Positions 38,839 to 62,049 of a stretch of DNA of 64,000 nucleotides are shown here, in pieces; the stretch's first letter is position 1, and each line of letters opens with the position of its first letter. The notes beneath the pieces are model-generated. The model saw only the letters and a program-made list of their open reading frames with translations, had not been told where the DNA came from and did no database searches. The stretch spans positions 1 to 64,000 of the forward strand of contig NZ_WHPN01000275.1 in assembly GCF_009735685.1 (NCBI RefSeq), written 5' to 3'. The DNA comes from Streptomyces lycii. Lineage in GTDB: Bacteria; Actinomycetota; Actinomycetes; Streptomycetales; Streptomycetaceae. Position numbers and translations under genes: made by a program.

Positions 38839-40419
<1,581 letters not shown>

Positions 40420-45571: not shown

Positions 45572-46870
45572 TCAGCCGTCCGCCCGGCGGAGCCCGCGGA
45601 CGGCCGGGACCAGCAGCAGCACCGCGACCACCCCGACGTTGAGCGCGGCGGCGCCCAGCAGGAGTTCGCGGGCGCCGAGCCAGTGCGCCGCCGGGGTGGC
45701 CAGGGCGCGCCCGGCGGCGAGCATGGCCACGGACCCGGCGACGTCGTACGCGTGCACCCGGTTCAGCTCGTGCGCCGGGACATGCGTCTGGACCGCGGTC
45801 GACCACATGACGACCCAGAACGCCAGTCCCGCCCCGCCGGCGAAGAAGGCCGCACCGAGGAGCGGCAGCGGCGCGCCCAGGGCGAGAGCCGCGACGTTGG
45901 CGGTGAGGCCGAGCAGGGCGAGCGCCCCGGCCGCCAGGGGTTTCCGGGGGCGGAGCCGCATGGCGAGCAGACCGCCCGCGGCGTTGCCCGCCCCCTGCAC
46001 GGCCAGCATGGTGCCCAGCGCGGACGCCCCGTGGTCCCGGGTGATGAGGACGGCCTGGAGGGGCAGCATGGGGCCGAGGACGACCAGGGAGTAGGCCGTC
46101 CAGACGGCGATGACGGACCACAGCCAGGTCCGGGAGCGGAAGCCCCGCCAGCCGTCCACGAGATCCCGCAGCATGGACCGCCCGTCGCCGTGGGCGGCCG
46201 GCGCGCGCCGCATGAGGAACAGGCACACCCCGCTGACGCCGAAGGTCGCGGCGTTGACGGCGAAGAGCGCGGAGGCTCCGCCGAGGCCCGCCAGTACGCC
46301 GGCCGCCGCCGGGCCGGCCATGGCCATCAGCGACTCGGAGACGCGGACCACGGCGTTGGCGCGCTGCACCTCGGTCGTGACGGCGGGGATCGTACTGGCG
46401 ATGCCGGGCTGGAAGAGACCGGTGCCGACGCCGTTGACCGCGCTGAGCACGTAGACCAGCCACAGGACCGGCTGCCCCGCCGCGAAGACGAACACGAGCG
46501 CCGTGGTGACGACGAGCCGGAGCAGGTCGGCCAGCACCATCATGCGCCGGGCGGAGAAGCGGTCGGCGAGCACACCGCCGAAGAGGACGAAGCCGGCGAA
46601 GCAGGCGGTCCAGGCCCCGAGGGCGAACGACACCGCGAAGGTGCCCTCCCCGGCCCCCACCAGTCCGGTCGCCAGGGCCACGGGCACCATGCCGTCGCCG
46701 AACTTGGCGATCGTACGGGCGCCGAAGAACAGCCCGAAGTCCCGGTTCCAGAGCGCGTGCCGGCCCGCCCCTCCCGCCGCCTCCCGCGCCTCGCCGGGCG
46801 GTTCCTCCGGCGGCCGGCGGCCGGCGGGCCGCCGCTCCCGGTCCGTGTCCGCTACGGGGTCAGCCGCCAT
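45572..46870 (-). CDS. MFS transporter
   Basis: A 432-residue major facilitator with ~12 membrane segments, of the enterobactin/drug exporter-like (MFS_3) type, e.g. GVLADRFSARRMMVLADLLR (~90-110, the loop 2-3 signature). A charged N-terminus (~1-30) precedes the first helix. ATG 46870 overlaps the end of the MurC-like gene by 11 bases, so it is likely co-transcribed and could export the locus product (inference). Confidence 0.9.
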   Translation of the reverse strand: MAADPVADTDRERRPAGRRPPEEPPGEAREAAGGAGRHALWNRDFGLFFGARTIAKFGDGMVPVALATGLVGAGEGTFAVSFALGAWTACFAGFVLFGGVLADRFSARRMMVLADLLRLVVTTALVFVFAAGQPVLWLVYVLSAVNGVGTGLFQPGIASTIPAVTTEVQRANAVVRVSESLMAMAGPAAAGVLAGLGGASALFAVNAATFGVSGVCLFLMRRAPAAHGDGRSMLRDLVDGWRGFRSRTWLWSVIAVWTAYSLVVLGPMLPLQAVLITRDHGASALGTMLAVQGAGNAAGGLLAMRLRPRKPLAAGALALLGLTANVAALALGAPLPLLGAAFFAGGAGLAFWVVMWSTAVQTHVPAHELNRVHAYDVAGSVAMLAAGRALATPAAHWLGARELLLGAAALNVGVVAVLLLVPAVRGLRRADG

Positions 46871-48410
46871 CACCGGCCGCCGCGGGGGCCGGGATCCGCG
46901 CGGCCTCAGCGACGGCCGGCCCGCGGCGGGCCAGTTCGTCGAGGAGCCGCGGCCCCACCGTGGTGATGTCACCGGTGCCCATGGTCAGCACGAGATCCCC
47001 GGGCCGGACCAGGTCCCGCAGCACGGGCAGGAACCGCTCCGCCTCGGGGCAGTAGGTCACGTGGCCGCCCGGCAGCGGTATCCGGCGGGCGATCAGTTCC
47101 CCGGTGACGCCGGGCAGCGGCTCCTCCCGGGCCCGCGAGACGTCCGAGACGACCACCTCGTCGGCCAGCCCCAGCGCGGCGCCGAACTCCGCGGGGAAGC
47201 GCCGGGTGGTGGTGAACAGCGGCGGCTGGAACGCGACGACCAGGCGCCCCTCCCCCGCCACGAAACGCGCGGCGCGCAGCTGTTCGCGGACCTTGGTGGG
47301 GTTGTGGGCGTAGTCGTCGTACACCCGGACACCGGCGGCCTCGCCCTTGAACTCGAAGCGCCGCGCGACCCCCTGGTAGGCCGCCAGCCCGCCGATCGCG
47401 TCCCGGGCGGAGAAGCCCAGTTCGACGGCGGTGAGCAGGGCCGCGGCCGAGTTCAGCGCCATGTGCCGGCCGGGGACCCGCAGCCGTACGGGCGGCAGCG
47501 GTACGCCGTCGAGCGCGGCATCCCAGACCGTGCCCTCGGGGCCGACGGTGAGGCCGGACAGCCGCAGATCGGCGCCGGGCGACTCGCCGTAGGTGCGGAC
47601 CCGCACCCGGCCGCGGGCGTGGTCGGCCAGGCGGGCGGCCCCGGGGTCGTCCACGCCCGCGACGAGCAGCCCGTCCGCGGGGAGCCTCTCCACGAAGCGC
47701 TCGAAGGCGCGGGCGTAGTCCTCGGCGGTTCCGTGCAGGTCGATGTGGTCGTCGTCGCCGACATTGGTGACGATGGCCGTGTCCGGCTCGAGCAGCAGGA
47801 AGGAGCTGTCGCTCTCGTCGGACTCGGCGATGAACAGGGGGCTGTTCCCGCGGTGGGCATTGGTCCCGGCGCCGCCGAGGTTCGCGCCGGCGGCGAAGGA
47901 CGGGTCGGTCCCGCACTGACGGGCGATCACGGTCAGCATGCCGGTGGTGGAGGTCTTGCCCGCCGTCCCGGCGACGGCGACGCGGTGCCCGCCGGCCATC
48001 ACGGCCGCGAGGGCCCCGGCGCGGTGCACCACCGGGAGGCCCAGCTCCCGGGCCGCGCGCACCTCGGGGTTGTCGTCGCGCAGGGCGTTGGACGTGACGA
48101 CCCGGCTCGCGCCCCGCACGTGCGCCGCATCGTGGCCGATGTGCACCACCGCCCCGAGCGAGCGCAGCGCCTCCACGTTGCGGGACTCCTTGGTGTCACT
48201 GCCGGAGACGGGCACACCGGCGGCCAGCAGGATGCGGGCGACGCCGCTCATGCCGGCGCCGCCGATGCCGACGAAGTGGGCCCGCGCGAACCCGGCCTCC
48301 CCGGCGGAGGCCGGGCGGGGACGGGAGACCGCCGCCCGTGCGAGGGCGGCCGGGGAACCGGGCAGCGGCCCGGTGCCGGTGGGACGTGCCGGGGACTGAG
48401 GCTTCGTCAT
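46860..48410 (-). CDS. Diverged MurC-like ligase
   Basis: A 516-residue Mur ligase closest to MurC, which joins L-alanine to UDP-MurNAc. The Rossmann N-domain is HFVGIGGAGMSGVA (~45-58) and the P-loop GTAGKTSTT (~147-155). Next come ESDESDSSFL, TNVGDDDHID (~214) and YDDYAHNPTK (~361). Against housekeeping MurC the His of GTHGKT is Ala, the Glu of TNxExDH is lost and AHHPTE is AHNPTK. An extra ~40-residue N-terminus is present. No cell-wall genes are near; an exporter overlaps and aminocyclitol genes follow. It is probably a paralogue recruited to a biosynthetic pathway. Confidence 0.85.
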   Translation of the reverse strand: MTKPQSPARPTGTGPLPGSPAALARAAVSRPRPASAGEAGFARAHFVGIGGAGMSGVARILLAAGVPVSGSDTKESRNVEALRSLGAVVHIGHDAAHVRGASRVVTSNALRDDNPEVRAARELGLPVVHRAGALAAVMAGGHRVAVAGTAGKTSTTGMLTVIARQCGTDPSFAAGANLGGAGTNAHRGNSPLFIAESDESDSSFLLLEPDTAIVTNVGDDDHIDLHGTAEDYARAFERFVERLPADGLLVAGVDDPGAARLADHARGRVRVRTYGESPGADLRLSGLTVGPEGTVWDAALDGVPLPPVRLRVPGRHMALNSAAALLTAVELGFSARDAIGGLAAYQGVARRFEFKGEAAGVRVYDDYAHNPTKVREQLRAARFVAGEGRLVVAFQPPLFTTTRRFPAEFGAALGLADEVVVSDVSRAREEPLPGVTGELIARRIPLPGGHVTYCPEAERFLPVLRDLVRPGDLVLTMGTGDITTVGPRLLDELARRGPAVAEAARIPAPAAAGDGG

Positions 48411-48459
48411 GCTGCTCCGGGCCTTCCGTGAAGCGGATCCGTGCCGGGGGAGACCGACG

Positions 48460-48508
48460 TTGCCATATATTGCCCATCATTGGCAATAGAAGCTGCGAAC
48501 GATACGGT
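48460..48508 (+). promoter_or_regulatory. Palindrome and promoter in the MurC-like/YdcF-like divergent gap
   Basis: TATTGCC-N7-GGCAATA (48468-48488) is a perfect 7-bp inverted repeat, with another TTGCC half-site at 48460. Its right arm overlaps a good plus-strand promoter: TTGGCA (48480-48485), 17 bases, TACGGT (48503-48508). A repressor bound here would block the YdcF-like gene. The same half-sites occur upstream of the inosose synthase. Confidence 0.65.
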
Positions 48509-48564
48509 CTCCATGTGCCCGTACCGCTACGGGGCCGGGTCATCCGAGGCAAGAAGGGGACAGC

Positions 48565-50953
<2,389 letters not shown>

Positions 50954-51754
50954 CTAGAGCAGACCGCGGATGGTTCCGCCGTCGACGCCCCAGACCGATC
51001 CCGTGACGAAGGACGCCGCGTCGGAGGCCAGGAACGCGATGACGCGGGCCACCTCCTCGGGCGCGCCCATCCGCCCGAGCGGCAGCTGGCGCTTGCTCAT
51101 CTCGTACTCCACCGCCTCCCTGGCGTCCCTGCCGTGGACGTCCCCCAGGGTCTCGGCGAAGCCGCCGGGGCGGGTCCACAGCGGGGTCCACACCGGGCCG
51201 GGGGCCACGGCGTTGACCCGTACCGCGGGCCCCTCGGACAGCGCCAGGCTCTTGGTCAGGCTGAGCAGGGCGACCTTGGAGACCTGGTAGTCGGCCGGTC
51301 CCGCCTCCGGCTGCCGGGCCAGGTCGGAGGCGTTGGTGACGATGCTGCCGCGGCCGCGGTCGCGCATGCCGGGGAGCACGAGCCGTACCGCGCGGACGGC
51401 GCTGAGGAAGTTGACCTCGAAGGTGTGCAGCCAGTCCTCGTCGGACAGCTCGCCGAAGGCACGGGCCCGGCACTGCCCGACGTTGTTGACGAGCACGTCC
51501 GTGTGCCCGCCGAAGGCGTCGAGCACGGCGGTGACGCCCCGGGCCACGCCGGGGCCGTCGCCGAGGTCCGCGGTGACCGCCGTCACCTCGGTGACCGCCG
51601 ACAGTTCCTTGGCCAGCCGGGCGAGTTCCTCCTCGTCGCGGTCCACGAGCCCCAGCCGGACGCCCTCCGCGGCGAGCACGCGCGCGGTCTCGGCCCCGAT
51701 CCCGCTCGCGGCACCGGTGACCAGGGCACTGCGTTCCGCAAGGCCGAGTTTCAT
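50954..51754 (-). CDS. SDR oxidoreductase of the aminocyclitol locus
   Basis: A 266-residue classical SDR. TGAASGIGAET is at ~13-23, the NNVGQ motif at ~88, the catalytic Ser in IVTNASD (~140) and the YQVSK Tyr-Lys at ~155-159. The full catalytic set is intact. ATG 51754 overlaps the cupin stop by 4 bases. In the 2-deoxystreptamine pathway a dehydrogenase oxidises the amino-deoxyinositol for a second transamination. This SDR could do that step, although the known enzymes are of other families (inference). Confidence 0.88.
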   Translation of the reverse strand: MKLGLAERSALVTGAASGIGAETARVLAAEGVRLGLVDRDEEELARLAKELSAVTEVTAVTADLGDGPGVARGVTAVLDAFGGHTDVLVNNVGQCRARAFGELSDEDWLHTFEVNFLSAVRAVRLVLPGMRDRGRGSIVTNASDLARQPEAGPADYQVSKVALLSLTKSLALSEGPAVRVNAVAPGPVWTPLWTRPGGFAETLGDVHGRDAREAVEYEMSKRQLPLGRMGAPEEVARVIAFLASDAASFVTGSVWGVDGGTIRGLL

Positions 51755-52491
51755 GCCACCCCCACCTCCGTGACGACGAACCGGACCGGCCCGCCGTCCG
51801 CGGGACCGCTCAGCTCGTAGGCGTAACCGGGCGGTACGGCCACGGACAGGCCGGGCTCCCCGCTGTGCTCGGTTCCGTCGACGGCGACCACCGCGCGGCC
51901 CTCCAGCACATGCAGGACGATGCTGCGGCCGGCGGGCACCCGCTCCCGGAGCGCGCCCCCGGCCGGGACCTCGACCAGCCGGAAGCACCGCCAGTCGCCG
52001 GTGAAGTGCGGGGTCAGGTCCACCTCGGCGCTGCGGTGCCCGGGCTCCGCGCCGGCGGTCAGCAGGTCCGGCACGTGGAGCTGCGCGGGCGCGGCGGCCG
52101 GTCCCTCGCCGGGGAAGACCTCGGTGACGAAGAAGTGCATGTCACTCGTCCCGCGGTTGGCGATGGAGTGCGAGGAACCGATCGGCGTGGTGACGAGGTC
52201 GCCCGCGACGGCCTCGGACTCCACACCGTCCATGGTGACGACGGCGCGCCCGGAGACGATGTGGTAGATCTCCTCGGTGCGCAGGTGGACGTGCTCGCCC
52301 ACCCAGGCGCCGGGCTCGATCACCACGTACTCCACGCAGTTCCACATGCCTTCCAGGTGCATGCCGTTCATCAGCGTCTTCCAGCGGCACACGCCCTCGC
52401 CCCCGACCTGGCGGTAGGTGACCGCCGCGCCGGACGTGTCGTTCGCTATCGGCCCGAAGGGGCGGCGCTCGCCGCGCACGACGGTGGCCAT
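51751..52491 (-). CDS. Bicupin protein
   Basis: A 246-residue protein with two cupin barrels. The N-terminal one has metal-binding-type residues (GEHVHLRTEEIYHIVSGRAVV, ~65-85, and SSHSIANRG, ~108). The C-terminal one (~150-246, VLHVLEGRAVVAVDG) has lost the His pair. It starts at ATG 52491, one base overlapping the inosose synthase stop (TGATG), so translation is coupled. A cupin is not a known part of 2-deoxystreptamine pathways. It may be an isomerase, epimerase or dioxygenase. Confidence 0.85.
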   Translation of the reverse strand: MATVVRGERRPFGPIANDTSGAAVTYRQVGGEGVCRWKTLMNGMHLEGMWNCVEYVVIEPGAWVGEHVHLRTEEIYHIVSGRAVVTMDGVESEAVAGDLVTTPIGSSHSIANRGTSDMHFFVTEVFPGEGPAAAPAQLHVPDLLTAGAEPGHRSAEVDLTPHFTGDWRCFRLVEVPAGGALRERVPAGRSIVLHVLEGRAVVAVDGTEHSGEPGLSVAVPPGYAYELSGPADGGPVRFVVTEVGVA

Positions 52492-53657
52492 CACGCACGC
52501 ACCAGGGCGGGGCGGGCGGCGAGCACGGACTCGATCCCGGTGCGCAGGACGTCCTCGTCCACCTGTGTGATCATGCCGCCGCCGGGGCGGTGCGGGCGGC
52601 CCAGGCCCTCCAGCAGGATCAGGTCGCAGCTGCCGGGGCGGGCCGCGACGTAGCCGCGCTTGTTGTCCAGGCGGACGATGCCGAGCAGGGCGTCGGGGTC
52701 GAGGCCGTCGGGCAGGGTCGTCGGCGCGCCGTTGCGGGTGAGCAGCACGTGGTGTGCCGCCTCGTCGGAGCGGTCCAGCAGTCCGAGTTCGCCCGAGACG
52801 CGGGCGGCGGCCAGCATGCCGAGCCCGATGGCGTACCCGTGCCGCAGGCGTCCCTCGCTGAGGAGTTCGGCGGCGTGGCCGACGGTGTGCCCGTACTCCA
52901 GCACCAGGGCCTGCTGCTTCTCGGTGGCGTCCTCCCGCATCACGGAGGTCTTGGCGTCCAGGCACAGCTCGATGAAGGAGATCAGGGCGTCCGGTGTGTA
53001 GCGGGCGTCGGGGCGGAGCAGCCGGGCGGTCTCGTCGAAGCGCTCGGGGACGATCCCGAGGACGTTCTTGACCAGCTCGCAGAGCGCGGAGCGGATCTCG
53101 TCGGCGGGCAGCGACTTGAGGAAGTCGAGGTGGTTCCAGACCAGGGCGGGGGCGTGGAAGGTGCCCAGGTGGTTCTTGCCGCAGCGGGAGTTGACGGCCT
53201 GCTTCAGGGACAGCACCGAATCGCTCATGGCCAGCAGGGTGGTGGGCATGTGGACCAGGCGGACGCCGCGGAAGACGAGCGCGGCCAGCAGCCCGGCGAG
53301 ATTGCCGACGAGGCCGCCGCCCAGCGCGACGACGACGGAGCGGCGGGTGATGCCGCCGCGCAGGGCGCGTTCGGCGATCCGGTCGAGCGCGACGAGGTTC
53401 TTCTCGGTCTCCGCGGCCTGTACGGGCAGCAGGTGGACCGGGGCCAGCGCGGAGAGGTGCGCCTCCGTCTCGGCGACCAGGCCGGCCGGAACGCCGGTGT
53501 CGGCGACCACGACGAAGCGGTCGGCGTCGAGCCGGGCGAACCGCTGGCCCATGTCGTGCCACGCGCCGTGGCCGTGCCGCACGTGGAAGTCGTAGCTGAC
53601 GTCGCCGAAACGGACCGTGCGGTCGAGTCCGGCAGTGCTTCTTGCCGAGGTGGTCAC
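52491..53657 (-). CDS. 2-deoxy-scyllo-inosose synthase-like sugar-phosphate cyclase
   Basis: A 388-residue enzyme of the dehydroquinate synthase superfamily. It carries the inosose-synthase-type block DSVLSLKQAVNSRCGKNHLG (~143-162) instead of the dehydroquinate synthase SVGGKTG. The NAD-binding ALGGGLVGNLAG is at ~118, and metal ligands are the Glu in LCELVKN (~194) and the His residues in EYGHTVGHA (~254) and LRHGYAIG (~270). DNKRGYV near the C-terminus is also typical. It should cyclise glucose 6-phosphate to 2-deoxy-scyllo-inosose. GTG 53657 follows GGAGTAGAC. It leads the operon with the cupin, the SDR and the aminotransferase remnant. Confidence 0.88.
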   Translation of the reverse strand: MTTSARSTAGLDRTVRFGDVSYDFHVRHGHGAWHDMGQRFARLDADRFVVVADTGVPAGLVAETEAHLSALAPVHLLPVQAAETEKNLVALDRIAERALRGGITRRSVVVALGGGLVGNLAGLLAALVFRGVRLVHMPTTLLAMSDSVLSLKQAVNSRCGKNHLGTFHAPALVWNHLDFLKSLPADEIRSALCELVKNVLGIVPERFDETARLLRPDARYTPDALISFIELCLDAKTSVMREDATEKQQALVLEYGHTVGHAAELLSEGRLRHGYAIGLGMLAAARVSGELGLLDRSDEAAHHVLLTRNGAPTTLPDGLDPDALLGIVRLDNKRGYVAARPGSCDLILLEGLGRPHRPGGGMITQVDEDVLRTGIESVLAARPALVRA

Positions 53658-53711
53658 GTCTACTCCAGGGAGTCGGGGGCGGGAGCAACGTAGTCGACCC
53701 GCGGAGCACCT

Positions 53712-53785
53712 GGCAATACTTTGCCTCAATGAGGCAAAAGTCTTGACTTCACGGACAGCTCCGATCATGCCAACAAACTTGCCTC
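53712..53785. promoter_or_regulatory. TTGCC/GGCAA operator cluster between inosose synthase and kinase genes
   Basis: TTTGCCTCA-A-TGAGGCAAA (53720-53738) is a perfect 9-bp inverted repeat. A GGCAATA half-site lies at 53712-53718 and TTGCCTC at 53779-53785. TTGACT (53743-53748) beside it could be a plus-strand -35 for the kinase gene, but the matching -10 is poor. The half-sites repeat those of the 48.46 kb operator. Confidence 0.65.
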
Positions 53786-53862
53786 CTGGGTGCTATGCTG
53801 ACGCGGCCGGCAACCGCCGACGGCTGTCCGGCCGCCCTCCCGACCGACTCCAGGAGCAGCTC

Positions 53863-54771
53863 TTGACGACCGGGTACACCGAGGACACCAGGCCCGCCAT
53901 CGACACCGCTCTGGTCCGGCGCCTGGTCGACAGCCAGTTCCCGCAGTGGGCCGGACTGCCCCTGACGCTCGTCGACCCCGCCGGCTCGGACCACGTCATC
54001 CACCGGCTGGGGGACCGGCTCTCCGTGCGGCTGCCCCGGCACGCCGGGGCGATCGGCCAGGCCAGGAAGGAGTACGAGTGGCTTCCCCGGCTGGCCCCGC
54101 ATCTCCCCCTCACCGTCCCGGTGCCGGTGGCGGTGGGCGAGCCCGGCTTCGGTTACCCCTGGCGGTGGGCGGTGGCCCGCTGGATCGACGGGGAGGTGGC
54201 GACCGCCGAGGCGCTGGGCGACTCGCCCGCGGTCGCGCGCGAACTGGCGCGGTTCCTGCTGGCCCTCCAGCGCTACGAACCGGAGGAGCCGACGGCCCTG
54301 TCCGCGGGCGGCTTCCCCGAGGACCTGGTCCCCGGCACCCTCGCCGACCGGGACGAGGTGACGCGCGCGGCCATCGCGCGAGTCGACGGCGTGTTCGACG
54401 GCGCGGCCATGACCCGGCTGTGGGACGCGGCCCTCGGCGCTCCCGCCTGGGACCGTCCCCCGGTGTGGATCCACGGGGACTTCCACACCGGCAATCTGCT
54501 GACCCGCGACGGCCGGCTCAGCGCCGTCATCGACTTCGGCGGCCTGGCGATCGGCGACCCGGCCGGCGACCTGGAGATCGCGTACACGCTGATGACGCCC
54601 GCCAGCAGGGACGTCTTCCGCAGCGCCCTGGGAAGCGACGACGCCACCTGGCTGCGCGGCCGCGGCTGGGCGCTGACCACGGGTCTCACCGCCTACACCG
54701 CCTACGCGGACGTCGACGCCCGGATCGCCGAACAGACCACCCGGCAGATCAACCAGGCACTGGCGGGATAG
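53863..54771 (+). CDS. APH-type aminoglycoside phosphotransferase family kinase
   Basis: A 302-residue APH-fold kinase. The nucleotide-binding ARKEYEWLPRLAPHLP lies at ~67, the catalytic loop HGDFHTGN at ~203-210 and the metal-binding IDFGGLAIGDPAGDLE at ~222-237. All catalytic residues are present. TTG 53863 is the start: AGGAG lies 6 bases upstream, and no ATG/GTG fits. Next to an inosose synthase, it is a natural candidate for self-resistance or for phosphorylating an aminocyclitol intermediate. Its substrate cannot be read from sequence. Confidence 0.9.
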   Translation: MTTGYTEDTRPAIDTALVRRLVDSQFPQWAGLPLTLVDPAGSDHVIHRLGDRLSVRLPRHAGAIGQARKEYEWLPRLAPHLPLTVPVPVAVGEPGFGYPWRWAVARWIDGEVATAEALGDSPAVARELARFLLALQRYEPEEPTALSAGGFPEDLVPGTLADRDEVTRAAIARVDGVFDGAAMTRLWDAALGAPAWDRPPVWIHGDFHTGNLLTRDGRLSAVIDFGGLAIGDPAGDLEIAYTLMTPASRDVFRSALGSDDATWLRGRGWALTTGLTAYTAYADVDARIAEQTTRQINQALAG

Positions 54772-59461: not shown

Positions 59462-60934
59462 TCACGACGCCCCGGCCGGCGCGGACACGGACGGCGCGGG
59501 GACGGGCGACGCGGTGACGGGCGACGCGGACACGGACCGGGCGGACTTGCCCCGTACCGGCGCGGGCGTGCCCCGTAGCGGCGCGGCGGCGTACCGGCGC
59601 AGTGACTCGGTGAACTCCTCCAGCCGCCCGGCCAGTTCACCGGCGGTGCAGACTCCCGGGCCGGCCGCGAACTCCAGCGTCAGGCCGCGGCCCGCCTGCG
59701 GGTCGCCGGACACGTTGAGCCGCAGGCCGTCGGCCGGTCCGGCGGCCAGGGTGCGCAGCGTCGTGACGCAGTCGCCGAACCGCAGGCCACGCTCGAAGGA
59801 CAGGATGTTGACGGAGGTGCGGCCGGGCCCGCCGTATCCGTGTCCGTGACCGGCGGGCGCGTCCGGTGAGCCGAAGCGGTGGCGCTGGTGGCGGAGCGCC
59901 CCGCCGACGCGTTCGGAGACCTGTCCGACGAGCGCGGCGAAGGCGTCATCCGCACCGGCTCTTCCCGCTCTTCCCGCTCTTCCGGCCGGTCCGGCCGGTC
60001 CCGCGGTCCGGGCGGGCGCCGGGGTGCGCAGCCGCAGCGGCAGTTCGTTGGCCAGGTTGGCCGGGGTGTTCAGCGCCGCCCGGGTGAGCCGCCCGGCGAC
60101 CATCAGCCCGAGTACGACGTCGTCGGTGCCGGCCCGCTCGCCGAGATGGGCGGCCAGCGCCGCGATCAGGACGGCGGACCAGCGGGTGCGCGCCTCACGG
60201 GCCGTGCCGAGCAGCGCGGCGACGACCTCGTCCGGCAGCCGGGCCGCCGCCCGCAGCGGCCGGACGGCCGCGGCACCGTCCCGCCCGGCGGGTCCGGTCT
60301 CCGGGTACGGGGCGGCGAGCACCTCGCGCCAGTACGCCTCGTCCCGGGCGGCCTGCCCGGAGTGCTGGTAGGCCATCTCCTCGCCGACCAGCTGGGTCAG
60401 GGTCCCGGCACGGCTCCCGGGCACGTCGGAGCCGGCGGCCAGGGCCGTGTAGACCTCGGCGACGCGGCGCAGGTACTGGTGGCGGCTGTAGGTGTCGGCG
60501 ACGACCCGGTGGTGGCGGAGGAAGAGCAGGTGGTGCCGCTCCCCGAGCGTGAGCAGGGCGTGCTCGTACGGCGGCCCGGAACGCGGGTCGCTCCCCTCGT
60601 CCAGCCGCTCCGCCATCCAGGCGGCGGCCGCGTCGGCGGGGCCGGTCCGGCCGGACAGGTCGTGGCGGGGCAGCGGTGCCTCGTCCGCCGGGACGACGCA
60701 CTGCCAGGGAAAGCTGTGGTCCTGGCCGAAGCGGACGCGCAGCGCCTCCGTCCCGGCCAGCGCCGTGTGCAGCGCGCGCTCCAGCAGGACGGGGTCGAGG
60801 TCCCCGCGGATCTCCACGTAGGCACCGCAGTTGTGAGCCGGGTCCGCCGGCGCGGCCGCGCCCTGTGCCCACATCCTCTGCTGCGCCGCGAGCAGCGGAA
60901 ACCGGGGGTGCGGTGGTGCGTCGTTCCCCGTCAC
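59462..60934 (-). CDS. Standalone NRPS condensation-domain protein with altered active site
   Basis: A 490-residue condensation-family protein: FPLLAAQQRMW at the start, ALRVRFGQD, then the active-site region LRHHRVVADTYS (~137-148). Aligned to the canonical HHxxxDG, the second (catalytic) His position is Arg and the Gly is Thr (H-R-V-V-A-D-T). LNTPANLANELPLRL, with a Gly/Arg-Ala repeat inside the C-lobe, follows, and NILSFERGL resembles NxLxF. GTG 60934 overlaps the carrier-protein stop by 4 bases. No adenylation domain is nearby. Confidence 0.8.
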   Translation of the reverse strand: MTGNDAPPHPRFPLLAAQQRMWAQGAAAPADPAHNCGAYVEIRGDLDPVLLERALHTALAGTEALRVRFGQDHSFPWQCVVPADEAPLPRHDLSGRTGPADAAAAWMAERLDEGSDPRSGPPYEHALLTLGERHHLLFLRHHRVVADTYSRHQYLRRVAEVYTALAAGSDVPGSRAGTLTQLVGEEMAYQHSGQAARDEAYWREVLAAPYPETGPAGRDGAAAVRPLRAAARLPDEVVAALLGTAREARTRWSAVLIAALAAHLGERAGTDDVVLGLMVAGRLTRAALNTPANLANELPLRLRTPAPARTAGPAGPAGRAGRAGRAGADDAFAALVGQVSERVGGALRHQRHRFGSPDAPAGHGHGYGGPGRTSVNILSFERGLRFGDCVTTLRTLAAGPADGLRLNVSGDPQAGRGLTLEFAAGPGVCTAGELAGRLEEFTESLRRYAAAPLRGTPAPVRGKSARSVSASPVTASPVPAPSVSAPAGAS

Positions 60935-61212
60935 GCGTCGTCCGCCTCCGCGGCCGCCAGCATGCGGTCGAGGAGGCCGGCCAGCTCCCCGACGGTCGCG
61001 TGGTCCCAGAGCGCGGTGGTGTCGACGGCCACACCGAAGTGGTCCTCGGCGGCGGCCGCGACGGCGAACCCGGTGAGCGAGTCGAGGCCGTAGTCACCGA
61101 GCGGGACGTCCGGGGCGATGGCGCTCACGGGCAACCGGGTGTGCCCGGCGACCTGCTCGGTGATCCACCTGGTCGTCGGTTCGGTCGCTGCTTCCGGTGC
61201 GGCAGTTGTCAT
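60931..61212 (-). CDS. Acyl/peptidyl carrier protein
   Basis: A 93-residue carrier protein with the phosphopantetheine Ser at ~45 in DYGLDSLTGF. ATG 61212 follows GGAGTGGAGCG. It is coupled to the condensation protein, which presumably uses the acyl group it carries. No ligase or adenylation gene to load it is present in the window. Confidence 0.9.
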   Translation of the reverse strand: MTTAAPEAATEPTTRWITEQVAGHTRLPVSAIAPDVPLGDYGLDSLTGFAVAAAAEDHFGVAVDTTALWDHATVGELAGLLDRMLAAAEADDA

Positions 61213-61494
61213 CGCTCCACTCCTTCGGTCACCCGTATGCGTTCCGGGACACGGGAACGGCCGTACCCGGCGCCGGGCGGCGACGCTGCCCGCGCTCGGG
61301 ACGCGGCACCGGGTAACACGGACGAGAATGCCCTCGCGTTCTTGTCGGCGGCTTGCTCCCGGCCCGCGGTGGCTCGCCGGGCACCGCCCGGGGGCGGTTT
61401 CCGACATCCGTTCGCCGTGCCCCGTGACCCTTGGCAGCCTGTCCGGGCGGGAAATCTGGAAGGAGACCGCCGCCCCACCGGGAGGAGAACGCCA
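61213..61494. promoter_or_regulatory. Divergent region between carrier protein and muramidase genes
   Basis: 282 bases without a gene. GC-rich with a GCCCGGGGGC-type hairpin near 61385. It must carry promoters for both divergent genes; none could be assigned. Confidence 0.35.
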
Positions 61495-62049
61495 GTGATC
61501 AACGGCATCGACGTCAGCTCCCACCAGCCCCAATACTCCGCCTCCGGATGCGACTTCGTCTTCGTCAAGGCCACCGAGGGCCGTTCGTACAGCAATCCGC
61601 ACCGCGCCGACCAGGCACGGCGGGCCCGGGAGGCGGGCTGTGTCGTGGGCTTCTACCACTTCCTGTGGCCCGGTGACATCGCGGAGCAGGCCCGGTACTT
61701 CACCGAGCGGTGCGGCGCGGAGAAGGGCGACGTGCTCGCCGCGGACTGGGAGGTGACCGCCGACGGCACCCGTGCGAGCGGCGAGGACAAGGACCGGTTC
61801 CTCGACGAGGTGCGCGAGCTGCGGCCGGACCACCGCGTGATCCTGTACTGCAACCGGACGTTCTGGCGGCGGCACGACACGTCGTCCGCTGCCGGGGACG
61901 GGCTGTGGATCGCCGACTACGTCACCAAGGGCGAGCCGCGGATCGAGGCGGAGTGGCGGTTCCACCAGTACACCGACACGCCTCTCGACAAGAACGTCGG
62001 CCGGTTCCGCGACAAGGACGCGCTGCGGGCCTGGGCGAAGAAGTCCTGA
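61495..62049 (+). CDS. GH25 muramidase (lysozyme)
   Basis: A 184-residue glycoside hydrolase family 25 domain that cuts the MurNAc-GlcNAc bond. It has GIDVSSHQ (Asp ~5) and LAADWEVT (Asp and Glu, ~82-85), preceded by VGFYHFLWP, and ends in WIADY...FHQYTDT. No signal peptide is present, so it is either leaderless or acts in the cytoplasm or after lysis. GTG 61495 follows GGAGGAGAACGCCA. Confidence 0.9.
   Translation: MINGIDVSSHQPQYSASGCDFVFVKATEGRSYSNPHRADQARRAREAGCVVGFYHFLWPGDIAEQARYFTERCGAEKGDVLAADWEVTADGTRASGEDKDRFLDEVRELRPDHRVILYCNRTFWRRHDTSSAAGDGLWIADYVTKGEPRIEAEWRFHQYTDTPLDKNVGRFRDKDALRAWAKKS

What the first reader, a model, noticed from the sequence alone, without database searches (positions are those of the whole stretch)
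45572..54771. Candidate undescribed aminocyclitol locus built around an inosose synthase
The sequence shows a 2-deoxy-scyllo-inosose synthase-like cyclase, a DegT/inosose-type aminotransferase (broken), an SDR, a bicupin and an APH-type kinase in one block. A MurC-like ligase and an MFS exporter adjoin them. Inosose synthase plus aminotransferase plus dehydrogenase is the core of 2-deoxystreptamine assembly (established). A Mur-type ligase and a bicupin are not known parts of that route, and no glycosyltransferase is present. I infer a small aminocyclitol, possibly acylated with an amino acid by the MurC-like enzyme.
Basis: partly seen in the sequence, partly recalled or inferred. Interest (0 to 1): 0.9.

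Follow-up and report, generated by a model that had tools for sequence, protein, structure and literature searches.

The report
Aminocyclitol cluster with MurC-like ligase
A rare set of eight genes, all found again in Streptomyces xiaopingdaonensis, is predicted to build a small sugar-like ring amine from glucose-6-phosphate and likely couples it to an acid with a remodelled relative of the cell-wall enzyme MurC.

Summary
The block has a cyclase of the 2-deoxy-scyllo-inosose (DOI) synthase clade, a bicupin, an SDR, a DegT aminotransferase split over frames, a PF27209 protein, a MurC-like ligase, an MFS transporter and an APH kinase. All eight recur in S. xiaopingdaonensis, aminotransferase intact; of ten flanking proteins searched there, nine gave no hit. 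That aminotransferase is closest to a solved DOI aminotransferase. The cyclase-bicupin-SDR triad is in 11 loci but rare: bicupin in 3 of 392 genomes sampled in the genus. Sister loci, one in this genome, have ATP-grasp ligases and no MurC-like gene. MurC-like is not the housekeeping MurC (46% identical, on another contig); its group of eight keeps the N-domain but changes C-domain motifs nearly invariant in 109 canonical rows. TTGCCA-N4-TTGCCM occurs four times in 7.65 Mb (backwards control two), twice at the two cyclase loci. Best reading: a small amide-type aminocyclitol pathway, with MurC-like as amide ligase on the cyclitol amine. The MurC-like link rests on two genomes read directly and two inferred; chemistry is untested.

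The parts
45572..46972 (-). MFS transporter, predicted exporter (true start probably nearer 46870-46825)
   Evidence: PF07690 88.2 bits; 64% to the MFS next to MurC-like in S. xiaopingdaonensis L150:1746-3014
46860..48410 (-). MurC-like ligase, second MurC-type protein of this genome, altered C-domain motifs
   Evidence: three Mur ligase Pfam domains; TIGR01082 415.6 bits, cut-off 335.1; other MurC at C372; motif changes; 67% to L150:249-1712
48411..48564 (.). divergent promoter with iterated element TTGCCATATATTGCCCATCATTGGCAA at 48460-48486, matched in the same promoter of S. xiaopingdaonensis (L150:184)
   Evidence: 1 match in the window, 0 in 100 shuffles
48565..49779 (+). PF27209-type protein of unknown function, predicted partly YdcF-like core plus low-confidence repeat-rich tail (49599-49680 is a 15-bp repeat)
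   Evidence: 65% homologue at the same place in L009
49780..50930 (-). DegT/DnrJ/EryC1 aminotransferase, L-glutamine:DOI type, reading frame broken (frame changes near 50.73 kb and 50.14 kb)
   Evidence: PF01041 on the middle piece; pieces 68/83/69% to intact L009 gene, which matches the solved L-glutamine:DOI aminotransferase 5w70 at 538 bits
50957..51754 (-). short-chain dehydrogenase/reductase
   Evidence: PF13561 183 bits; 66-80% in nine of the ten distinct sister loci, 38% in Dictyobacter L016
51754..52491 (-). bicupin; N-terminal cupin keeps a metal-type site, C-terminal cupin has no HxH
52494..53768 (-). sugar-phosphate cyclase, 2-deoxy-scyllo-inosose synthase clade (true start probably near 53657)
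53617..54771 (+). APH-type phosphotransferase (true start probably near 53863)
   Evidence: PF01636 117.7 bits; 66% to APH beside MurC-like/MFS in L150:3150-4061

Best explanation
The block is a rare eight-gene cluster, found again in S. xiaopingdaonensis, that likely makes a small amide-type aminocyclitol with a remodelled MurC-like enzyme as the predicted amide ligase. Likely steps: the cyclase turns glucose-6-phosphate into 2-deoxy-scyllo-inosose (inferred from clade and active-site signature). The bicupin and SDR, directly after the cyclase in all 11 triad loci, rework the ring by isomerisation or dehydration and redox (inferred; order unknown). The aminotransferase, broken here but intact in relatives and in this genome's second locus, puts an amine on it with L-glutamine (inferred from its closest solved relatives). 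The MurC-like ligase would then use ATP to join a carboxylic acid to that amine; its N-domain is largely kept and its amino-acid pocket is changed (pocket assignment recalled). MFS exports the product and APH phosphorylates it for self-protection or as a processing step (inferred). The TTGCCA-type promoter element suggests joint control with this genome's second cyclase locus, perhaps by the XRE-TPR regulator on contig C48 (untested).
For: Cyclase: DOI synthase 2d2x (BtrC by recall) is the best solved match; E where DHQS has N; parted from DHQS at 100. Aminotransferase: intact L009 copy 538 bits to 5w70 (RbmB by recall) and 307 to 2c7t (BtrS by recall), both deposited as L-glutamine:DOI aminotransferases, next class 174; window middle piece 76-78% to aminotransferases beside the cyclases of Streptoalloteichus L035, L036, L045, L058. 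Linkage: all eight genes in S. xiaopingdaonensis, where contigs 248 and 249 each hold one end of the PF27209 gene; cyclase, PF27209 and MurC-like proteins of Streptomyces sp. NPDC051956 all list a contig of 237067 bases, and a second trio lists 103396. Ligase role: sister loci L008, L013, L108, L113, L114 and L162 hold ATP-grasp or L-amino-acid-ligase-like genes near the triad, while window, L009 and L150 gave no such hit at E 1e-3. MurC-like: housekeeping-type MurC is elsewhere, 45-46% identical; the group of 8 deviates at 1 of 36 near-invariant N-domain columns, 3 of 54 middle, 5 of 48 C-domain. Promoter element: 15 match rows at one mismatch or fewer in 13 loci, 0 with the same loci read backwards; 4 sites in the whole genome, 2 in its control.
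Against: No product, activity or expression data. Of the 15 cyclases nearest the window's (P0180-P0194) only those three other sources have a MurC-like partner among the 120 listed; and three MurC-like/PF27209 pairs (contigs 47467, 9004, 15024) show no cyclase of that contig length among the 120 listed. MurC-like still scores above the MurC equivalog cut-off. Two of its changes are not special: the P-loop H to A is in 21 and the E to K in 24 of 24 intermediate proteins; the canonical rows were chosen by that histidine, so its invariance there is by construction (it is also invariant in the 25 rows). The window protein itself lacks the one N-domain and one of the three middle-domain deviations. 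The window's aminotransferase is broken, so its own locus may be dead or may borrow the C58 enzyme. The promoter element has no match at one mismatch or fewer in L113, L013, L010, L012 or L014. PF27209 relatives also stand beside other genes (L157-L159), and a 35% bicupin relative has no cyclase in its 20 kb (L163).
Confidence: 0.55

Rival explanations
1. The MurC-like protein is a spare, drug-insensitive MurC that protects the producer from its own product, while the amide bond is made by another enzyme or not at all.
For: It passes the MurC equivalog cut-off, keeps the N-domain nearly whole, the genome has a separate canonical-motif MurC, and a transporter and an APH, both self-protection types, are in the block.
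Against: All 8 group members change HHPTE to HNPTK and the histidine and arginine of FQPHxxSRT; by recall these line the alanine end of the pocket, so a working MurC would be unlikely. In sister loci without it, ATP-grasp ligases appear.
Confidence: 0.15
2. The cluster makes 2-deoxystreptamine or 2-deoxy-scyllo-inosamine as part of an ordinary aminoglycoside whose glycosyltransferases lie elsewhere.
For: Cyclase and aminotransferase are of the DOI/DOS type; an APH is present; L008 has a family-2 glycosyltransferase about 7 kb from the cyclase.
Against: The bicupin and SDR follow the cyclase in all 11 triad loci, while the Streptoalloteichus loci (aminoglycoside makers by recall) have no bicupin hit; no glycosyltransferase among the ten proteins scanned.
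Confidence: 0.12
3. The cyclitol genes are a decaying remnant; MurC-like, MFS, APH and PF27209 form a separate functional unit that merely lies next to them.
Against: Same eight genes in S. xiaopingdaonensis with an intact aminotransferase; cyclase, bicupin and SDR open and under similar constraint.
Confidence: 0.18

Closest known systems
2-deoxystreptamine pathway (BtrC-type DOI synthase, BtrS/RbmB-type L-glutamine:DOI aminotransferase; names recalled)
   Same: Cyclase clade and aminotransferase type
   Different: Bicupin and SDR directly after the cyclase, no glycosyltransferase among the block's scanned proteins, ATP-grasp or MurC-like ligases present
Nabscessins of Nocardia abscessus (PMC11364655, passages read)
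   Same: Small aminocyclitol with small acid groups, proposed to start from a DOI synthase
   Different: The N. abscessus cyclase found here (L057, presumably that locus) lies in another branch; no bicupin or MurC-like hit in its 21 kb
Bacilysin genes bacABCDEF (gene roles recalled)
   Different: Starts from a sugar-phosphate cyclase, not prephenate; only one cupin domain keeps a metal-type site; YlbA-type cupins tie with BacB
MurC, UDP-N-acetylmuramate:L-alanine ligase
   Same: Three Mur domains, TIGR01082 above cut-off
   Different: P-loop histidine, HHPTE and FQPHxxSRT motifs changed in all eight of the group

Membership tests
2-deoxy-scyllo-inosose synthase | Groups with DOI synthases, not dehydroquinate synthases | tested here: met
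   SH-aLRT 100 split from 5 DHQS among 61 rows; 273.8 against 137.1 bits
2-deoxy-scyllo-inosose synthase | E in place of the DHQS N before the YGHT motif (signature partly recalled) | tested here: met
2-deoxy-scyllo-inosose synthase | Makes DOI from glucose-6-phosphate | not testable with these tools
   needs enzyme assay
2-epi-5-epi-valiolone-type cyclase | Closer to solved valiolone-type cyclases (4p53, 5tpr; types recalled) than to DOI synthase 2d2x | tested here: not met
   73.4 and 78.6 bits against 273.8; no such row was put in the tree
L-glutamine:DOI aminotransferase | Best solved relatives are of that type | tested here: met
   intact L009 copy: 5w70 538, 2c7t and 5w71 307, next class 174 bits; the window copy is in pieces
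2-deoxystreptamine aminoglycoside cluster | Glycosyltransferase in the cluster | tested here: not met
   none among the ten proteins scanned; rest of the window not scanned for one
MurC (UDP-MurNAc:L-Ala ligase) | Three Mur ligase domains and equivalog score | tested here: met
MurC (UDP-MurNAc:L-Ala ligase) | HHPTE and FQPHxxSRT motifs (and the P-loop GTHGKT) | tested here: not met
   8 of 8 group members differ; near-invariant in 109 canonical rows, which were chosen by the P-loop H; H150, H370, E373, H397 and R401 all invariant in the 25 rows
BacB-like bicupin isomerase | BacB/AerE fold | tested here: inconclusive
BacB-like bicupin isomerase | Metal-type histidines in both cupin domains (recalled for BacB) | tested here: not met
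   alignment A1: H67, E74, H108 invariant in the N-domain, H69 not in L016; no HxH in the window's C-domain
DUF218/YdcF-like | YdcF fold of the PF27209 protein | tested here: inconclusive

The most novel reading that the evidence does not exclude
The MurC-like ligase still takes UDP-MurNAc (its N-domain is nearly unchanged) but joins it to the aminocyclitol amine instead of L-alanine, giving a cell-wall nucleotide capped with an aminocyclitol: a new class of natural product made from a peptidoglycan precursor, and a Mur ligase recruited to antibiotic synthesis.
Probability: 0.12. Interest if true: 0.88.

Novelty: new variant of a known kind. Interest (0 to 1): 0.6.

Why it matters
DOI synthase is usually read as the mark of aminoglycosides. 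Here it heads a small gene set without a glycosyltransferase in which the ligase differs, ATP-grasp in some loci and MurC-like in others, over one shared core. That gives a ready test of how Mur ligases can be turned to new amines, and a handle (cyclase + bicupin + SDR) for finding more such loci.

Tried and rejected
Dehydroquinate or valiolone-type cyclase: rejected. The window MurC as the housekeeping MurC: rejected; C372 holds one with the canonical motifs, and 58 of 60 relatives show exactly one MurC at E 1e-60 (G001, incomplete, none; G010 two). WelO5-like genes in sister loci as halogenases: not favoured; all three sequences read HND, not the HxG recalled for WelO5. PF27209 protein as a cluster-only gene: rejected; L157-L159 show it beside other genes. 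Foldseek gave no usable match for it; among the chains VIA-align compared only YdcF stood out. Plasmid collection: 115 records matched the cyclase, all under 60% identity, best-ranked 43.5%. Literature: the listings showed no description of this gene set; PMC10745416 was searched for MurC pocket residues without result, so pocket roles are recalled. Labels: the P rows were put in the 'cupin_core' group by identity to the cyclase only; a bicupin beside them was not checked. The genome samples overlap.
Full report
What is there. On the minus strand between 45.5 and 53.8 kb lie, in order of transcription, a sugar-phosphate cyclase, a bicupin, an SDR and a DegT aminotransferase, nearly end to end, then a MurC-like ligase and an MFS transporter; two genes run the other way, a PF27209 protein (48565-49779) and an APH kinase (53617-54771). 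The aminotransferase is broken as sequenced: its homology passes through two frames in three segments. Each segment still matches the intact genes of L008 and L009 at 63-83% and shows pN well under pS, so the break is recent or a draft error. The window genome is in the same genus as G105, whose locus is identical to the S. atriruber record L011 over 16296 bases, hence Streptomyces.

Cyclase and aminotransferase. The cyclase matches the solved DOI synthase 2d2x (BtrC by recall) at 273.8 bits and the best dehydroquinate synthase at 137.1. Of 103 rows aligned, 42 read KEGETH, as 2d2x, 41 KEAETH, as the window, 16 KERNTH, as DHQS, and four otherwise. In a tree of 61 rows the five DHQS part from the rest at 100. 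The intact aminotransferase of L009 matches 5w70 at 538 bits and 2c7t and 5w71 at 307, all three deposited as (L-)glutamine:DOI aminotransferases, against 174 for the next class. DOI as first product and amination by L-glutamine are thus well-supported inferences, not shown.

A conserved core. Of the 80 cyclase loci, seven also hold the bicupin, directly after the cyclase and before the SDR; so do L108, L113, L114 and L162, which were fetched because of a cyclase or bicupin hit. L011 and L113 are the same place. With the window that makes 11 distinct loci: Streptomyces, Mycobacterium europaeum, Nocardia, Umezawaea and, more distantly, Dictyobacter. The aminotransferase follows directly in the window, L008, L009, L011, L108 and L114; L010, L012 and L016 have no hit, L013 has a 38% relative further off, and L162 ends after the SDR. 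The bicupin at E 1e-25 or better is rare: 3 of 392 genomes in the genus, 3 of 394 in the family, one of them at 35% identity, 4 of 199 around S. xiaopingdaonensis, one at 34%; the samples overlap and include the query genomes. A 35% relative (L163) has no cyclase hit in its 20 kb. This genome has two loci: the window and C58 (L108), whose aminotransferase frame is open.

Two kinds of ligase. Near the core, L008, L013, L108, L113, L114 and L162 have ATP-grasp or L-amino-acid-ligase-like genes; C58 (L108 with L151), L113 and L114 also have a GATase-like and a glutamine-synthetase-like gene. Window, L009 and L150 gave no hit to any of these at E 1e-3. Instead they have MurC-like. In S. xiaopingdaonensis contig 248 carries cyclase, bicupin, SDR, intact aminotransferase and most of the PF27209 gene up to its end; contig 249 begins with the first codons of that gene, then MurC-like, MFS and APH, 67, 64 and 66% identical to the window's. 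Of ten flanking window proteins searched there, nine had no hit and one matched at 26%. Against this: of the 15 cyclases nearest the window's (P0180-P0194) the other 12 have no MurC-like partner among the 120 listed, and three MurC-like/PF27209 pairs (47467, 9004, 15024) have no cyclase of that contig length among the 120 listed.

The MurC-like protein. It passes the MurC equivalog cut-off, but a MurC with canonical motifs is on C372. Against 25 MurCs it differs at 12 of 94 strictly invariant columns; the 25, each tested against the rest, differ at 0 to 9. With 120 database proteins added, eight, the window's own among them, share HHPTE to HNPTK and FQPHxxSRT to FQPP with T or S for R. Deviations shared by at least 7 of the 8 fall at 1 of 36 near-invariant N-domain columns, 3 of 54 middle and 5 of 48 C-domain columns; the window protein lacks the N-domain one and one middle one. 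Not all changes are special to this group: 24 intermediate proteins all have the E-to-K change and 21 of them the P-loop H-to-A change; four others (S. prunicolor, MST-110588, S. canus, one unnamed) show other changes at the same places. In the alignment to 1gqq/1p3d the C-domain changes are at chain positions 349, 352, 376 and 380 (counted); that they line the alanine end of the pocket is recalled. I infer that the acid side is kept and the amine side changed, which fits an aminocyclitol as acceptor.

Shared control. The MurC-like/PF27209 promoter has TTGCCATATATTGCCCATCATTGGCAA, one match in the window and none in 100 shuffles for its first 18 bases; S. xiaopingdaonensis has TTGCCAAATGTTGCCCATGACTGGCAA at the same place. 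In the window, L150 and eleven cyclase loci, TTGCCA-N4-TTGCCA gives 15 match rows at one mismatch or fewer and none when the same loci are read backwards (40 against 12 at two); 24 control loci (487 kb) give one. Besides the promoter named, rows lie upstream of the cyclase in L008, L009 (about 500 bp off), L108, L114 and L162 and before the XRE gene of L150; rows at window 35287 and in L016 look like chance; L113, L013, L010, L012 and L014 have none. In the whole genome TTGCCANNNNTTGCCM occurs four times (pattern backwards: two): window, C58 cyclase promoter, C48 and C66. The only XRE-TPR homologue at E 1e-20 (55%) is on C48, beside two ligases and an MFS related to those of the sister loci.

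Verdict. The finding is real, and its linkage in another genome is now shown. It is a new variant of DOI-based aminocyclitol loci; nabscessins show that sugar-free DOI products exist. Main uncertainties: what the MurC-like enzyme joins and how firmly it belongs, what bicupin and SDR do, and whether the window's own copy works.

Noticed in passing
L108/L151 (G000:C58:8000-44000): A second cyclase-bicupin-SDR-aminotransferase locus in the same genome, with ATP-grasp, L-amino-acid ligase, MFS, GATase-like, glutamine-synthetase-like and WelO5-like genes.
   Followed up: partly
L169 (G000:C48:22000-41000): A third locus, without cyclase hit, with the XRE-TPR regulator, two ATP-grasp ligases, MFS, S9 peptidase and PhyH oxygenase; near-matches of the TTGCCA element at L169:2880 and 15568.
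   Followed up: partly
L108:10674-11510, L114:4764-5657, L113:7678-8481: WelO5-family genes that keep HxD (HND), so more likely hydroxylases than halogenases.
   Followed up: partly
L010, L012 (Mycobacterium europaeum, Nocardia sp. alder85J): Cyclase-bicupin-SDR triad without an aminotransferase hit, hinting that bicupin and SDR act on the inosose itself.
   Followed up: no
proteins P0004, P0006, P0011, P0012: Another group of MurC-like proteins (S. prunicolor, MST-110588, S. canus, one unnamed) with different changes at the same pocket motifs; context unseen.
   Followed up: no
L157, L158, L159: PF27209 gene, 61-62% like the window's, in three other genomes of the genus, beside a large gene that looks like a 2-oxoglutarate dehydrogenase (recalled, not scanned).
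   Followed up: no
window 39325-39552: Two tandem repeat arrays (18 and 15 bp) inside an open frame that looks like L-serine ammonia-lyase (recalled, not scanned).
   Followed up: no
window 59462-61965: Condensation-domain gene and carrier-protein domain (NRPS-type) beside a sigma factor.
   Followed up: no
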